Below the pieces are notes generated by a model. That model searched no databases and was not told the origin of the DNA. It was given only the letters and a program-made list of their open reading frames with translations. 35,369 bases of DNA from Bacteroidales bacterium (lineage in GTDB: Bacteria > Bacteroidota > Bacteroidia > Bacteroidales > P3), in the NCBI GenBank assembly GCA_016281475.1, contig JAEEIS010000226.1:1-35369 (forward strand), written 5' to 3'. A program made the position numbers and the translations under genes. Below, one piece after another: positions 15,204 to 20,400 of the stretch; position 1 is the first letter of the stretch, and each line of letters opens with the position of its first letter.

Positions 15204-15398
15204 ATGTCAGACGAAGTAAGAAAACTCTATCGCAACCCTCGTGACAAGAAAATCGCAGGGGTTTGCAGCGGCATCGCTGAGTACCTCAGTGTCGATGTCA
15301 CCGTGGTGCGTATACTCTTTCTGATTGCCTTGGTGTGTGGGGGATTCGGCCTGTGGATATACTTGATTGTTTGGCTTGTTGCCCCCGAAAGAGCCTGA
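15204..15398 (+). CDS. PspC-domain small membrane protein
   Basis: This is a 64-residue protein that is one PspC domain. A basic N-terminus (KLYRNPRDKKIAGVCSGIAEYL) is followed by VDVTVVRILFLIALVCGGFGLWIYLIVWLVAP, one long hydrophobic segment. PspC proteins take part in envelope-stress responses in proteobacteria. In Bacteroidota, stand-alone domains of this length are common and their role is unknown. It ends one base before the start of the next gene, so the two are probably co-transcribed. Confidence 0.9.
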   Translation: MSDEVRKLYRNPRDKKIAGVCSGIAEYLSVDVTVVRILFLIALVCGGFGLWIYLIVWLVAPERA

Positions 15399-15399
15399 T

Positions 15400-16548
15400 A
15401 TGAAACGATTGATATTGTTGTTGGTCGTTACATTCATTTGGAATGTGGCGAAGGCGCAGGACAGCTCTGCTGTCGAGATTGTGGGCTACACCACGCCCAA
15501 CTACGAACAGATAAAGAAGGACTGCAACGATAAGAAAAGCCCTCGTTACTACCCCACGCTCGTCAAGCGTTTTGCTGCGGTTGACACCACCCTCCAATTG
15601 GAGGATATGCAGACGTTCTATTATGGGCAGGCAATCCTTGATGGATTTTGGCCATATAGTCATTATGATGAGTTTGACGAAATCCGCGCCATCATGCGCA
15701 AGGACGAGGCTCCCACCATCGAAGACACCCGAAAGATAGTCAAGCTTGCCGACGCTGTGATTGCAAAGTACCCTGCCGAACCGATGGCGTATTACTATAA
15801 GTTTGTCGGGCAGAGCATGGAATGTGAATACTTCGGAGGAGATACGGCTGAAATGCAGCGGACGCAGTTGCAGTTTCAGATGCTGTTCTACACCATTGCC
15901 GGCACTGGCAATGGCCTCACGCCCGAGTTGGCGATGCATGTGGTGAACGTAGCGCACGAGTACATGATGATGAACATGTATGGTTTCCGTTCATCGAAGC
16001 AGGCATTGATGAGTATCGACGGCCACAGTTACGACATGTTCCTGATTGACACAAACGAGTACGGTGTGGACACCCTCTATTTCAACATCGACCGCATTCT
16101 TGGAGCATGGGGCGATGCCTTGTCCAAAGCCGCGTCGGAACCTACCACAACGATAGACTTGGAATTGGGTGTAAAGTTCGTATTGGAGCTGGAAAAGCCC
16201 AAGCGGAAGAACAGCAAGTTTGTGCTGGTATCGAAAGAATATGTGTCGGATACGCTGATTAGCGACCGCGACAGCCTATTCCGTGAGCCTGTGCTGGAAA
16301 ACCAGATAGTGGGCTATTTCTGCCCAATGCGCCTGTACGAGGGCAGCGAAAGTGTATACAACTGTCTCGTGTTCATCAGCAACTGCGGCAAGGACCAGCT
16401 CTATTATGATGTTTTCATTGCAGCCGGAGACCACAAGGAGTACTTCCAATCTTCGAATAGTGGCATGCCGCGTGGCGTGATGATGAACGAGATGTGGCAG
16501 ACCGACGTGCAAGGCCTTCGCATCAGCAACATTCGGACGAAAGAGTGA
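15400..16548 (+). CDS. Exported DUF4919-like protein
   Basis: This is a 382-residue protein with signal peptide MKRLILLLVVTFIWNVAKA. The start at 15400 is preferred because it sits one base after the PspC stop and gives a clean signal peptide. The first half (YEQIKKDCNDKKSPRYYPTLVKRFAAVDTTL..EDMQTFYYGQ) matches my memory of DUF4919, a helical family of Bacteroidota with unknown role. The C-terminal part (after ~270) is beta-rich with no recognised motif. It is the last gene before the sigma-barrel fusion, 51 bp upstream of it. Whether it belongs to that system is not known. Confidence 0.65.
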   Translation: MKRLILLLVVTFIWNVAKAQDSSAVEIVGYTTPNYEQIKKDCNDKKSPRYYPTLVKRFAAVDTTLQLEDMQTFYYGQAILDGFWPYSHYDEFDEIRAIMRKDEAPTIEDTRKIVKLADAVIAKYPAEPMAYYYKFVGQSMECEYFGGDTAEMQRTQLQFQMLFYTIAGTGNGLTPELAMHVVNVAHEYMMMNMYGFRSSKQALMSIDGHSYDMFLIDTNEYGVDTLYFNIDRILGAWGDALSKAASEPTTTIDLELGVKFVLELEKPKRKNSKFVLVSKEYVSDTLISDRDSLFREPVLENQIVGYFCPMRLYEGSESVYNCLVFISNCGKDQLYYDVFIAAGDHKEYFQSSNSGMPRGVMMNEMWQTDVQGLRISNIRTKE

Positions 16549-16563
16549 TTTTTTTCATTTCCA

Positions 16564-16600
16564 TGCAGTCTTTCTTAGAGAAAATGTCTCTAAAGAGACA
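16564..16600 (+). promoter_or_regulatory. Bipartite motif and palindrome before the sigma-barrel gene
   Basis: TGCAGTCTTT (16564-16573), 12 bp, then GTCTCTAAAGAG (16586-16597). The second half belongs to the inverted repeat TGTCTCT-AA-AGAGACA (16585-16600), whose end touches the ATG at 16600. The same two half-sites with the same 12 bp gap occur at 18231-18264. The layout (two blocks whose starts are 21-22 bp apart) would fit -35 and -10 boxes of an ECF promoter, with transcription starting at or just before 16600. A repressor or activator operator is the alternative. Confidence 0.55.
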
Positions 16601-18219
16601 TGACGGACATGGAACGATTGGTAGAACAGGCGAAGACTGGCGACAGGCAGTCGCTAAACACGTTATACCACCGCTATAGGCAGCGTGCGTTTGCCATTTG
16701 TCGCCATATCACGCACGACAAGGAAATCTCCGAAGAGCTTGTTGACGACGCTTTCCTCATTGCTTTTAGCAAGTTGGACCATCTCAACGACCCAGAGAAG
16801 TTCGAGCATTGGCTGTCGGCTATTTCGACGAGGCTGGCATTGCGCCATGTGAAACGTCGGCCTGAAAGCAGAACTATTCCAATCTCTCATATAGAAGGTT
16901 TCGATGTACCCGTTGAAGCATATGATCCCCCGTTCGCGCCAGAGGAGTTGCAGGCAGCCATAGATCGGCTGCCTACTGGATATCGACAGGTGCTCACCAT
17001 GGCGGTGATTGAGGGCAAACCTCACAAGGAGATTGCGCAGGCACTGAGTATTGAGCCCCATTCCTCCTCATCGCAGTTGTATCATGCCCGTGTGATGTTG
17101 CGACGTATTCTTGGACCGCTGCTGTGTGCCATGCTGTTGGTCGTGCCTCTCATTATGACTCAAGACCAAGGAGGCGACAACCCTCAGTTGTCGGCCCGTG
17201 TACCTGCAATGCCAACGGTTGGGGAGCCAACGGTGTTGCCCGAGACGATTACTAACATTCCTACAATGACGGTTTGTAATACTCACACTGCATTGGACGA
17301 GCAGCCTATTGCGATGCGGCAGAACGACACTGCATTTACTATACATACCTCCCCATGCAATGAGAATACTGTCTATACCTTTGCGCCCAATAAGGTGTAT
17401 GGTAACATGAAGTCGAATCTAGTAACGGCTCATGCAATAAGTGGATGGTCGGTGGCGGTGGCGATGACGCGTTCGCTATCGGGAGTGGAAATAACGCAGC
17501 GACCGCATGCATTGTTGCTGCCCACGGTATCAGCTACTAGCAACCATGGCCAGAGCGTGTCAATAGCCAATTGGCGCGACTGCAAACGGTATGTGTTGGA
17601 GAATAGTAGTCTATTCTCGGACGAGGTGGCGGCAGCACTGATACGAATAGCTCAAAGCAATGAATTAGACAATGATGGCGAGATAATCCGCACGGAATCT
17701 CACGAGCCACCGTCTACCATGGCAGTTGTGCTCCATTATGCAATAGACAGTGTGTTCGCCCTATACGCGGGCATGGCTCACGGAGAATACCGCTCTTATT
17801 TCCAGACTGGAGTCGGTCGTGACAGAATTGATGAACGGCAGAGCGTTACTTACCTTGAGGTTCCCATCGGAGTGACCTATAATGTGTGTATGACATCTCG
17901 ATTCGGTTGTCACCTATCTGCCGACCTCTCGCTACAGTTGCCTTTGTCTCTTCAGAGAAACACCAGTTTTGTAGTCGGAGGGCAGACAAACGATGGGGTG
18001 GCAGAACTACCCATTTTCGAGCAGTCGGAACAAATAAAGTCACCCAACATTATGGCAGGGGTGAAAGTTGGCGTGCATTATCGTCTGACAGAGCACATTG
18101 GTTTCTTTGTAGAGGGTGGCATTAGTTATACAATTATTGGTGGGCAGTCCATTGTCACCTATGCCACGGTTCACCCCTTAGTCATTTCTGCCCAGACAGG
18201 ACTACGTTATACATTATAG
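16600..18219 (+). CDS. ECF sigma factor fused to membrane helix and outer-membrane-type beta barrel
   Basis: This is a 539-residue single uninterrupted frame. Residues ~10-88 are sigma region 2 (from GDRQSLNTLYHRYRQRAFAI to FEHWLSAISTRLALRHVKRR). Residues ~114-170 are sigma region 4 with its helix-turn-helix (HKEIAQALSIEPHSSSSQL). A hydrophobic helix follows at ~170-187 (ILGPLLCAMLLVVPLIM). A low-complexity Thr/Pro-rich stretch and unknown region lie at ~188-370. The C-terminal ~165 residues have alternating strands typical of PorT-like or small outer-membrane barrels (TYLEVPIGVTYNV, HIGFFVEGGISYTII, SAQTGLRYTL). Membrane-tethered OMP-like proteins encoded beside ECF sigma genes are known in Bacteroidales; here both are one chain. 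An anti-sigma gene is absent. Release by proteolysis is an inference. Met4 (16609) is an alternative start if transcription begins near 16600. Confidence 0.85.
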   Translation: MTDMERLVEQAKTGDRQSLNTLYHRYRQRAFAICRHITHDKEISEELVDDAFLIAFSKLDHLNDPEKFEHWLSAISTRLALRHVKRRPESRTIPISHIEGFDVPVEAYDPPFAPEELQAAIDRLPTGYRQVLTMAVIEGKPHKEIAQALSIEPHSSSSQLYHARVMLRRILGPLLCAMLLVVPLIMTQDQGGDNPQLSARVPAMPTVGEPTVLPETITNIPTMTVCNTHTALDEQPIAMRQNDTAFTIHTSPCNENTVYTFAPNKVYGNMKSNLVTAHAISGWSVAVAMTRSLSGVEITQRPHALLLPTVSATSNHGQSVSIANWRDCKRYVLENSSLFSDEVAAALIRIAQSNELDNDGEIIRTESHEPPSTMAVVLHYAIDSVFALYAGMAHGEYRSYFQTGVGRDRIDERQSVTYLEVPIGVTYNVCMTSRFGCHLSADLSLQLPLSLQRNTSFVVGGQTNDGVAELPIFEQSEQIKSPNIMAGVKVGVHYRLTEHIGFFVEGGISYTIIGGQSIVTYATVHPLVISAQTGLRYTL

Positions 18220-18230
18220 TTGTCGGAGCG

Positions 18231-18264
18231 TGCAGTCTTTTGTACGCAGTTGGTCTCTATAGAG
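18231..18264 (+). promoter_or_regulatory. Second copy of the bipartite motif, before the radical SAM gene
   Basis: TGCAGTCTTT (18231-18240), 12 bp, then GTCTCTATAGAG (18253-18264), which contains the perfect palindrome CTCTATAGAG. It agrees with the copy at 16564-16597 in 21 of 22 motif positions and in spacing, while the 12 bp in between differ. It ends 19 bp before the radical SAM start. This is a likely shared promoter or operator of the sigma-barrel cassette. Confidence 0.6.
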
Positions 18265-18283: not shown

Positions 18284-19345
18284 ATGTACAAAGTAACTGA
18301 TTACCTGACTAGCGGACTGCTCTATGCCAACAACAGCCTGCATCCGCACCACAAGCAACTAAGCCAACTGATGATTTATGCCACCACGGCATGTCAGTCG
18401 CGCTGCCAGCATTGTTCTATTTGGAAGAAGCCTCATGAGAATCTGTCGTTCGACGATATTGTGCGGGTGATGCAAAGCAACTGCGTGAAACCTTGTACTA
18501 CGGTGGGACTCGAAGGTGGCGAGTTTATACTTCACCCACAGACAGAACAAATTCTCGACTGGTTTATGCACCACCATCCCAACTACACATTGCTCTCCAA
18601 CTGTCTTGCTCCCGACAGGCTGATTGACCTCACGCGGCGATATTGGCCGAAACATCTTTACCTCTCCTTGGATGGTAACCGCCAGACGTATATCCACATG
18701 CGGGGATGCGACGGCTATCCAAAGGTGATGAGAGTGATTGAAGCCTTATCTGACGAGGTGCCTATCTCGTTGATGTTCTGTCTGTCGCCGTGGAATAGCT
18801 TTGGTGATATGGAATATGTCATCCGTTTGGCCCAGCAGCACCACATCGATGTGCGGGTTGGCATCTATGGCACCATGGCATTCTTTGATACGACAAGCGA
18901 CCTTCTCGTAGCAACAGACTTCGCTTCCCAGATACCCCATGCTGTTCATGAGACAAGCGAGAATTACGACTATGTGGCACTCTACGACCAATGGCGCAAT
19001 GGTCATCTTCGTCTTCCTTGCCTTAGCATAGGCAACCAAGCTGTGATTCATGCCAATGGCAACGTCCCCATCTGTCAGAACCTCGACTGTATACTCGGCA
19101 ACATTCACAATCAGTCGTTCGACGATATTTGGAATAGCCATACATCTTGTAGTCTTCAACGTCAATATGGTATGACATGCAATGGGTGTTGGATTAATTT
19201 CCATCGCAAGTACGACATCATCCTGCTTCGCACACTCGAGCGTATTCTCCCCAAGCGGATGCTGGAGAAACTGTATGGTCCCTACTGGTGGTGCGAAGAC
19301 CATAGTGTTACTTACCGCCAGTATTTTAAGAGCTGCCAATTATGA
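18284..19345 (+). CDS. Radical SAM enzyme with SPASM-like C-terminus
   Basis: This is a 353-residue protein with the radical SAM cluster motif CQSRCQHC (Cys37, Cys41, Cys44) after LMIYATTA, and the GGE-type motif GLEGGEF (~75-81). The C-terminal third carries further cysteines at 246, 264, 269, 289, 299 and 302, in the context NGNVPICQNLDCILGNI..FDDIW then CNGCW. This is the arrangement of a SPASM or twitch domain with auxiliary Fe-S clusters. Such enzymes modify peptides, sugars or other small molecules; no precursor-peptide gene is visible nearby, so the substrate is open. The gene overlaps the following oxidoreductase by 4 nt (ATGA). It follows the sigma-barrel gene by 64 bp, with the shared bipartite motif in between. 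Confidence 0.85.
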   Translation: MYKVTDYLTSGLLYANNSLHPHHKQLSQLMIYATTACQSRCQHCSIWKKPHENLSFDDIVRVMQSNCVKPCTTVGLEGGEFILHPQTEQILDWFMHHHPNYTLLSNCLAPDRLIDLTRRYWPKHLYLSLDGNRQTYIHMRGCDGYPKVMRVIEALSDEVPISLMFCLSPWNSFGDMEYVIRLAQQHHIDVRVGIYGTMAFFDTTSDLLVATDFASQIPHAVHETSENYDYVALYDQWRNGHLRLPCLSIGNQAVIHANGNVPICQNLDCILGNIHNQSFDDIWNSHTSCSLQRQYGMTCNGCWINFHRKYDIILLRTLERILPKRMLEKLYGPYWWCEDHSVTYRQYFKSCQL

Positions 19346-20400
19346 TGAGAAGACTTATCAATCAGGCTCGCCGATTGAGAACAGAGGCTGCGTTGGCGCG
19401 TTCCTGCAATCGACATTATGCCTTTGTGGGCATAGGCGGTCACAGCATGGCGAATCTTTATCCTGTTCTGAATCTTTTGCACGTGCCGTTAAAATACATT
19501 TGTGTCACATCCTCTCGTAAAGTCAAACTTATTGATTCAAATCCTGGTTTCAAACATGTTGTTGCGACAACCTCCCTTGACATGGTTTTGGACGATCCAG
19601 AGGTGGCGGCAGTCTTCGTGTCGGCAACGCCTGCTGCCCATTATCGTATTGCTACGGCCGTCTTGCAGCATGGTAAAGCTTTATTCATTGAGAAACCGCC
19701 ATGCCAAAACTTGCTTCAGCTCGAGTCTCTAATCAATCTTCAAAAACAGGTGTGTTCTTATGTGCAAGTGGGAATGCAGAAACGATATGCACCTGCCATA
19801 CGTAGGCTAAAGACACGATTAAAAGGCGACACGGTTTATAACTACACAATGCGCTATTGTGTGGGGCATTATCCAGAGGGTGATGCCTTCACGGATCTTT
19901 TTATCCATCCGATAGATCTGGTCATACATCTTTTTGGCGCAGCCGAGGTTGTGTCGATGCATTTCGTGGCAGAACATACTGTGGTGCTGATGCTTGCTCA
20001 TGGTGATGCGGTGGGAACGGTAGAATTATCCACTGGCTATTCATGGGCAGCACCTGTTGAGAGTATGACTGTTCACACTCGTTTAGGTGTCTACGCCCTC
20101 CCCAGCATAGATGTACTCACGTTTCAACCAGTGGAAGTGTCATTAGCGGGCATTCCGTGGGAGAAGATAAGACATTACAACGGCTCAGTGGAGTACCTTT
20201 GTCGTCACGATAGTTTCTCCCCAATATTGGAATCGTCTACATGGGTCGAACATGGTTTCTATCACGAATTGAAAGACTTTGTGGATAAGGTTGAGGACCG
20301 TGTGTCTGTATGGCATCGAATTCCTCTTAATACCTGCCCTACCCTTCAGTCTCTGTTGCCAGTGTATCAAATAATAGACACCTGCCTACAGCAATTGTAA
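19342..20400 (+). CDS. Gfo/Idh/MocA-family NAD(P)-dependent oxidoreductase
   Basis: This is a 352-residue protein. After a basic leader, the Rossmann motif is YAFVGIGGHSMANLYPVL (~28-45). AAVFVSATPAAHYRIATAVLQHGKALFIEKPPC contains the family motif EKP. The second half has the mixed-sheet dimerisation domain (FTDLFIHPIDLVIHLFG). Members oxidise or reduce sugars, inositols and similar polyols. The glycine pattern GIGGHS differs from the usual GxGxxG, so cofactor binding should not be assumed. It is translationally coupled to the radical SAM gene, suggesting that both act on one substrate, perhaps a surface sugar. The stop codon lies in the loop of the terminator hairpin. Confidence 0.85.
   Translation: MMRRLINQARRLRTEAALARSCNRHYAFVGIGGHSMANLYPVLNLLHVPLKYICVTSSRKVKLIDSNPGFKHVVATTSLDMVLDDPEVAAVFVSATPAAHYRIATAVLQHGKALFIEKPPCQNLLQLESLINLQKQVCSYVQVGMQKRYAPAIRRLKTRLKGDTVYNYTMRYCVGHYPEGDAFTDLFIHPIDLVIHLFGAAEVVSMHFVAEHTVVLMLAHGDAVGTVELSTGYSWAAPVESMTVHTRLGVYALPSIDVLTFQPVEVSLAGIPWEKIRHYNGSVEYLCRHDSFSPILESSTWVEHGFYHELKDFVDKVEDRVSVWHRIPLNTCPTLQSLLPVYQIIDTCLQQL

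What the first reader, a model, noticed from the sequence alone, without database searches (positions are those of the whole stretch)
16600..18219. Sigma factor, membrane helix and outer-membrane-type barrel in one polypeptide
Seen: one intact 539-codon frame with ECF sigma regions 2 and 4 (~10-170), a hydrophobic helix (~170-187), a ~180-residue linker and ~165 residues of barrel-like strands ending in TGLRYTL. Known: ECF factors normally act with a separate anti-sigma, and Bacteroidales often encode a tethered OMP-like protein beside the sigma gene. Inference: this chain could sense the envelope or outer membrane directly and release its sigma part by intramembrane proteolysis. That would be a one-protein trans-envelope signalling device with no anti-sigma. 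How a cytoplasmic N-terminus and a barrel could share one chain is itself an open problem.
Basis: partly seen in the sequence, partly recalled or inferred. Interest (0 to 1): 0.9.

Follow-up and report, generated by a model that had tools for sequence, protein, structure and literature searches.

The report
Outer-membrane-tethered sigma factor and promoter
One protein joins a gene-switching sigma factor to an outer-membrane barrel by a long tether; this layout was already known (Dma3), but the locus also shows a likely private promoter and the enzymes it probably switches on.

Summary
Window 16600-18219 is an intact 539-codon frame: ECF sigma regions 2 and 4, a membrane helix continuing the last sigma-4 helix, a disordered tether of ~100 residues and an 8-stranded OmpA/OprF-like barrel of ~255 residues. 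It is no sequencing join: 79 of 80 genome loci hold one open frame. The layout is published as Dma3 (BT_2778) of Bacteroides thetaiotaomicron (PMC13088901), so this is a new member of a known kind. All 18 fused representatives form one clade beside sigmas paired with separate Dma genes; the anti-sigma segment is absent. Not found in print: a promoter-like element (TGCAGTCTTTT, ~11 nt, GGACTATATA; TCTCTA here) before the fused gene in 94 and after its stop in 90 of 100 loci, ahead of a radical SAM/SPASM-Gfo/Idh pair. Radical SAM carries it in 68 of 71 fused loci, in 0 of 8 genes elsewhere, and in a ninth whose genome has the fused gene. Best reading: a tethered sigma without anti-sigma, freed by proteolysis, driving itself and a small local operon. 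Release, signal and product are untested.

The parts
16600..18219 (+). fused sigma-TM-tether-barrel gene (Dma3-type), 539 codons; the start may be the ATG at 16609 (residue 4), which aligns with the start of many relatives
16663..16860 (+). sigma-70 region 2 (residues 22-87)
   Evidence: Pfam PF04542 E 4.2e-10
16942..17097 (+). sigma-70 region 4 (residues 115-166) with the fused-family signature PHSSSSQL (residues 153-160)
   Evidence: Pfam PF08281 E 3.7e-12; PHSSSSQL in 333 of 339 fused, 0 of 45 unfused sigmas
17107..17163 (+). membrane helix (residues 170-188), continuing the last sigma-4 helix
17164..17439 (+). disordered tether (residues ~189-280)
   Evidence: pLDDT < 50 for 175-280; 0.71 bits mean conservation; length 80-142 in 339 relatives
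17446..18216 (+). 8-stranded outer-membrane-type barrel (residues 283-539), helical insert 325-360 between strands 1 and 2
16549..16555 (+). T-run upstream of the first promoter-like element (an A- or T-run stands there in many relatives)
16564..16574 (+). promoter-like element, -35-like part TGCAGTCTTTC before the fused gene
   Evidence: GCAGTC form before the gene in 94 of 100 loci
16587..16592 (+). -10-like TCTCTA, 16 nt after GCAGTC
18231..18241 (+). second copy of the element, TGCAGTCTTTT, 12 nt after the stop codon
   Evidence: GCAGTC form within 160 nt after the stop in 90 of 100 loci
18254..18259 (+). -10-like TCTCTA of the second copy, 16 nt after GCAGTC
18284..19345 (+). radical SAM/SPASM protein, predicted target of the second element
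   Evidence: Pfam PF04055 and PF13186; conserved next to the fused gene
19342..20400 (+). Gfo/Idh/MocA-type oxidoreductase overlapping the radical SAM gene, presumably the same operon
   Evidence: Pfam PF01408

Best explanation
The gene encodes a Dma3-type protein: an ECF sigma factor whose sigma-4 domain runs straight into an inner-membrane helix, then a disordered tether long enough to cross the periplasm, then an 8-stranded barrel in the outer membrane. With no anti-sigma domain, the sigma is probably kept silent by being pinned at the inner membrane. When the barrel senses or suffers a change in the outer membrane, the tether and then the membrane helix are probably cut (RseP-type protease), freeing the sigma. 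The freed sigma then recognises a private promoter (TGCAGTCTTTT, ~11 nt, GGACTATATA; TCTCTA as the -10-like part in the window), which stands before its own gene and before the next gene. That gives positive autoregulation plus induction of a small local operon: the radical SAM/SPASM and Gfo/Idh pair here, often with a small lipoprotein-like gene in Prevotella-type loci. Shown by computation: architecture, single origin, absence of the anti-sigma segment, element, gene neighbourhood, co-occurrence. Inferred: topology in the cell, silencing by tethering, proteolytic release, recognition of the element by this sigma. Signal and enzyme product are unknown; an envelope modification is a guess.
For: Architecture. 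Known kind: Dma3 carries the sigma domain at its N-terminus. Single origin: 18 of 18 fused representatives in one clade, 100/100; the only 'unfused' row inside is L058, a fused gene whose frame is split; the sister group (82/93) is 9 rows, 7 of them distinct, next to separate Dma-like genes. Anti-sigma segment absent. Tether 80-142 residues, median 110, 94 here, in 339 fused proteins. Element: 94 of 100 loci before and 90 of 100 after the gene; the composite form gives 79 and 83 of 100, 0 on the minus strand of 970 kb and 1 in 181 kb of 44 control loci. In 329 genomes only 4 of 38 composite sites lie away from a fused match; 25 of 28 genomes with the element have a fused match, against 81 of 329 overall. 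In five related genomes only 1 of 11 sites lies away from the fused gene. Radical SAM: 41 of 47 genomes holding it have a fused match, 39 of 49 places lie directly downstream. The element stands within 160 nt before radical SAM in 68 of 71 fused loci, in 0 of 8 radical SAM genes elsewhere, and in 1 of 1 on a separate contig of a genome that has the fused gene.
Against: No experiment shows that this sigma uses the element, or that the chain is cut; another regulator's site or an RNA leader element would also be strand-specific. The patterns were drawn from these very loci, so only the scarcity of sites elsewhere is informative. The short form without the -10-like part is less specific: YATGCAGTCYTT hit 16 places in 7 genomes, 9 of them away from the fused gene, control 5; TGCAGTC[TC]TT also had 6 minus-strand sites in 970 kb, where about 3.7 are expected on both strands. 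An A-run pattern hit 21 of 101 genomes, 8 of them without a fused match. 40 of 81 genomes with a fused match gave no radical SAM match at 1e-40, and 9 of 60 loci with at least 2.5 kb downstream lack it, so the target set varies. Three of 71 fused loci lack the element before radical SAM. In the published work dma3 was not needed for the hypervesiculation of dma1 and dma2 mutants, so its role is open. BT_2778 itself could not be compared by sequence. Loci and genomes are related, and some loci are near-copies, so counts and Fisher values overstate independence. pTM is 0.48: domain placement is not modelled reliably.
Confidence: 0.65

Rival explanations
1. The sigma acts while still anchored (as CadC/ToxR-type membrane-bound regulators do, recalled), the barrel changing its activity mechanically, with no proteolysis.
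For: No cleavage site can be read from the sequence; the tether is unconserved. Membrane-bound transcription regulators exist (recalled).
Against: The membrane helix follows sigma-4 within about 2-5 residues, leaving no linker for binding RNA polymerase and promoter DNA. The fused sigma IutY of Pseudomonas putida is freed by Prc and RseP (PMC8999054 passages).
Confidence: 0.13
2. The TGCAGTCTTTT element is not this sigma's promoter but a site for another regulator or an RNA leader/processing element that merely travels with the locus.
For: The second copy sits 4-5 nt after the stop in many Prevotella-type loci; a further copy before radical SAM often overlaps a long dyad.
Against: Bipartite with 16 nt between GCAGTC and TCTCTA here, strand-specific in its composite form, tied to presence of the fused gene, together with a family-specific, nearly invariant sigma-4 segment.
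Confidence: 0.22
3. The chain is always cut after synthesis into a free sigma and an independent outer-membrane protein, so the fusion co-produces two proteins and is not a sensor.
For: A long unconserved tether could be cut anywhere.
Against: Tether length is bounded (80-142 residues, 5th percentile 97, n 339) although its sequence is free, as expected of a spacer that must reach the outer membrane; 15 separate Dma-like proteins keep the same layout with 123-162 residues.
Confidence: 0.09
4. Two separate genes joined by a sequencing or assembly error, or a chance reading frame.
For: One unfused arrangement has sigma and Dma in the same frame with a stop and four codons between them (L119).
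Against: 79 of 80 genome loci open through the fusion; one clade of fused sigmas.
Confidence: 0.01

Closest known systems
Dma3 (BT_2778), Bacteroides thetaiotaomicron
   Same: sigma domain at the N-terminus of a Dma protein, no adjacent ECF21 sigma gene (PMC13088901, Discussion section read); the dma3 locus is given as bt_2778-2779 and is upregulated in dma1 and dma2 mutants (passages)
Das1-Dma1, Das2-Dma2 and EcfO-Reo sigma/anti-sigma pairs of Bacteroides/Phocaeicola
   Same: described with membrane helix, tether and C-terminal outer-membrane barrel; two-gene sigma/Dma-like loci are the nearest sigma relatives on the tree
   Different: two genes; membrane helix of the Dma-like protein starts at residue 46-56, after an anti-sigma segment (13 of 13); a NigD-like neighbour in L124; composite element in 1 place of 44 control loci
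IutY of Pseudomonas putida (ECF243)
   Same: sigma fused to a membrane-bound regulatory part, freed by Prc and RseP (PMC8999054 passages)
   Different: works with a separate TonB-dependent receptor (recalled); no barrel in the same chain (recalled)
SCO4117-type ECF52 of Streptomyces coelicolor
   Same: sigma with membrane helices and an extracytoplasmic region in one chain (PMC8999054 passages)
   Different: actinobacterial, zinc-finger and carbohydrate-binding parts, no outer-membrane barrel

Membership tests
Dma family | inner-membrane helix | tested here: met
   residues 170-188
Dma family | long intrinsically disordered tether | tested here: met
   175-280 pLDDT < 50
Dma family | C-terminal beta-barrel | tested here: met
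Dma family | N-terminal anti-sigma domain | tested here: not met
   no room between sigma-4 and the helix; Dma3 is described as the exception with a sigma domain there
Dma3-type (sigma-Dma fusion) | sigma domain at the N-terminus of the same chain | tested here: met
Dma3-type (sigma-Dma fusion) | no adjacent separate sigma gene | tested here: met
   flanking genes are DUF4919 (15367-16548), radical SAM and Gfo/Idh
Dma3-type (sigma-Dma fusion) | sequence kinship with BT_2778 | not testable with these tools
   BT_2778 was not shown under a name among the 120 rows of each; relatives named Bacteroides sp. were (P0165, P0212, P0220)
ECF21 sigma group | group profile match | not tested
   no ECF-group profiles on hand; kinship with Dma-linked sigmas on the tree
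ECF sigma factor | regions 2 and 4 present and conserved | tested here: met
   2.66 and 3.25 bits mean over 108 representatives

The most novel reading that the evidence does not exclude
A complete one-protein circuit from outer membrane to promoter: barrel sensor, tether and sigma in one chain with no anti-sigma, dedicated through a private promoter to its own gene and a small local operon led by a radical SAM/SPASM enzyme and a Gfo/Idh oxidoreductase that would remodel something in the envelope.
Probability: 0.5. Interest if true: 0.78.

Novelty: new member of a known kind. Interest (0 to 1): 0.57.

Why it matters
[quoted passage not shown] This locus family supplies what was missing for a direct test: a candidate promoter kept in Prevotella, Muribaculaceae and other Bacteroidales loci, a compact candidate regulon, and a signalling chain with few parts. 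It would make the question of how an outer-membrane state reaches transcription testable with one gene and one reporter, and it points to a radical SAM/Gfo-Idh pathway of unknown product.

Tried and rejected
Sequencing join or chance frame: rejected.

Barrel by Pfam alone: below cut-off for this protein; accepted only after the structure model and relatives.

First reading of the element as -35 = A/T-run and -10 = GTCT: dropped once the second copy, which mostly has no A/T-run before it, aligned from TGCAGTC onward.

First element searches: with the A-run required, 21 of 101 genomes matched, 8 of these without a fused match (control 5); the short form YATGCAGTCYTT gave 16 places in 7 genomes, 9 away from the fused gene (control 5). 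Both superseded by the composite patterns, which were drawn from the loci themselves.

Finding B. theta Dma3 by name: the 120 rows shown by each of three protein searches hold no record so named; the single genome-contig scan kept the best 80 of 220 relatives, none from B. theta. 'BT_2779' in papers: only a chemistry paper listed. A listing for Dma and radical SAM together showed no paper on the link (20 of 43 listed, two of three terms enough).

Defence-system match: none for the sigma protein; a weak viperin-like hit for the radical SAM protein, E 4.6e-5, taken as general radical SAM similarity. No NCBIfam model over its cut-off for the radical SAM or Gfo/Idh proteins.

Full report

Not an artefact. 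Each of three protein searches scored about 8000 candidates and found 335, 2043 and 1653 homologs at E <= 0.001 (not every one need be fused). Of 80 loci from genome contigs, 79 carry one open fused frame. In 339 fused proteins the tryptophan at the barrel start is kept in 335, the last residue is W in 306 and F in 25, and the tether is 80-142 residues long (median 110; 94 here) although its sequence is hardly conserved. At ~0.36 nm per residue (recalled) even the shortest could span a ~20-25 nm periplasm (recalled).

Known kind. A 2026 paper (PMC13088901; abstract, passages, Discussion and part of the reference list seen) describes Dma proteins (anti-sigma domain, membrane helix, disordered tether, barrel) and says that Dma3 instead encodes its sigma at its own N-terminus. 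The founding PNAS 2024 paper is not held. Related pairs respond to envelope-active toxins and gut conditions in Phocaeicola vulgatus (passages of PMC9308784 and PMC13114119). BT_2778 is listed with a value of 2.3 in a table of iron-dependent genes (PMC10434189 passages). A B. thetaiotaomicron network paper does not mention BT_2778 in its text (PMC12596196, word search). So the architecture is not new.

Distribution and origin. Matches at E <= 1e-60, some of them partial, occur in 81 of 329 genomes of one family, 6 of 101 genomes of the family of a close relative and 2 of 149 genomes drawn from the order, one of the two split. A tree of 64 sigma domains puts 18 of 18 fused representatives (under 45% identical) in one clade with 100/100 support; the one 'unfused' row inside, L058, is a fused gene whose frame is split. 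The sister group (82/93) is 9 rows, 7 of them distinct, each next to a separate Dma-like gene (unfused rows were chosen by similarity to the fused profile). In 13 of 13 unfused Dma-like proteins the membrane helix starts at residue 46-56, after a segment like the described anti-sigma domain; fused chains have none. PHSSSSQL in sigma-4 is in 333 of 339 fused and 0 of 45 unfused sigmas. One fusion with loss of the anti-sigma segment and a change of promoter specificity explains this; that is inference.

A promoter-like element. Comparing 98 regions upstream of fused genes showed shared word pairs in up to 60 of them, against at most 5 in one letter-shuffled set. The shared element is TGCAGTCTTTT, ~11 nt, GGACTATATA, often with an A/T-run in front. 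A second copy follows the stop codon, usually by 4-20 nt, on the same strand. Using GCAGTC[TCA][TC] it is found before the gene in 94 and within 160 nt after it in 90 of 100 loci; the stricter composite gives 79 and 83 of 100, none on the minus strand of 970 kb, 3 other plus-strand sites, and 1 hit in 44 control loci of 181 kb. The short form is less specific: 6 minus-strand sites in the same 970 kb (about 3.7 expected on both strands), and 9 of 16 sites in seven genomes away from the fused gene (control 5). In the window the element stands at 16564-16574 with TCTCTA at 16587-16592, and at 18231-18241 with TCTCTA at 18254-18259, both with 16 nt between GCAGTC and TCTCTA. In 329 genomes a composite pattern, drawn from these loci, hit 38 places in 28 genomes (control pattern: 2 places); 34 of 38 lie beside a fused match and 25 of the 28 genomes have one. 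Of the 4 others one precedes a fused-gene remnant (L247). In five related genomes a pattern for the window's form gave 11 places, 10 of them flanking the fused gene (control 2). What these two searches add is how few sites lie elsewhere.

What it precedes. Behind the fused gene there is, in 56 of 100 loci, a small ~187-residue protein that begins like a lipoprotein (two of them tested, no Pfam match), and in many loci a radical SAM/SPASM protein and a Gfo/Idh/MocA oxidoreductase. In the window radical SAM follows directly. Among 60 loci with at least 2.5 kb downstream, radical SAM is found in 51 and Gfo/Idh in 49. In 329 genomes, 41 of the 47 with this radical SAM protein have a fused match, and 39 of 49 radical SAM places lie directly downstream; 40 of the 81 genomes with a fused match have no such radical SAM match. 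The telling contrast: the element is within 160 nt upstream of radical SAM in 68 of 71 fused loci, and in 0 of 8 radical SAM genes elsewhere (six genomes without a fused match and two second copies with identical upstream sequence), while a ninth, on a short contig of a genome that has fused genes, carries it.

Mechanism. The sigma, pinned at the membrane without linker, is probably inactive until cut; RseP-type proteases are present in 7 of 7 related genomes, as in the 14 control genomes. The precedent for release of a fused sigma is IutY, cut by Prc and RseP (PMC8999054 passages). The freed sigma would switch on its own gene and the small local operon. What the barrel senses and what the enzymes make is not known; damage to or misassembly in the outer membrane is the natural guess.

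Verdict. A real, conserved, already described kind of protein, here with a candidate promoter and regulon that I did not find in print (paper searches; the founding paper could not be read, so priority is not claimed).

Noticed in passing
L120:305-2887, L121:1357-3787, L122:489-2827: Other Bacteroidales have a sigma with a C-terminal extension that seems to hold an anti-sigma-like segment and a hydrophobic helix, followed by a separate barrel-like gene: a different division of the same parts (read by eye).
   Followed up: partly
L119:1612-3387: Separate sigma and Dma-like genes in the same reading frame with one stop and four codons between them, the arrangement from which a fusion could arise.
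   Followed up: no
L010 and others, ~640 nt after the fused stop: The copy of the element before radical SAM in many Prevotella-type loci (GCAGTCATT form) overlaps a long dyad that spans the -10-like part.
   Followed up: no
L007:7744-8289: Small lipoprotein-like protein between fused gene and radical SAM in 56 of 100 loci; no Pfam match in the two tested. Possibly a counterpart of NigD in the Dma1 regulon.
   Followed up: partly
L058, L090/L123, L144/L150, L146, L247: Split, short or remnant copies of the fused gene in several genomes, the element still in place in front of one remnant (L247).
   Followed up: partly
P0075, L141, L143: Some predicted fused proteins begin MQSF, which is the element ATGCAGTCTTT read as codons: probably start codons called inside the promoter-like element.
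   Followed up: no
G165, G207, G215, G287, G336, G375, G457: Genomes with two full-length or nearly full-length fused genes on different contigs.
   Followed up: no
G001:C5:20063-20090 (L229): One element-like site away from the fused gene; the gene behind it was not examined.
   Followed up: no
window 15367-16548: DUF4919 protein (PF16266) directly upstream of the fused gene, and an M3 peptidase before it; no link found.
   Followed up: no
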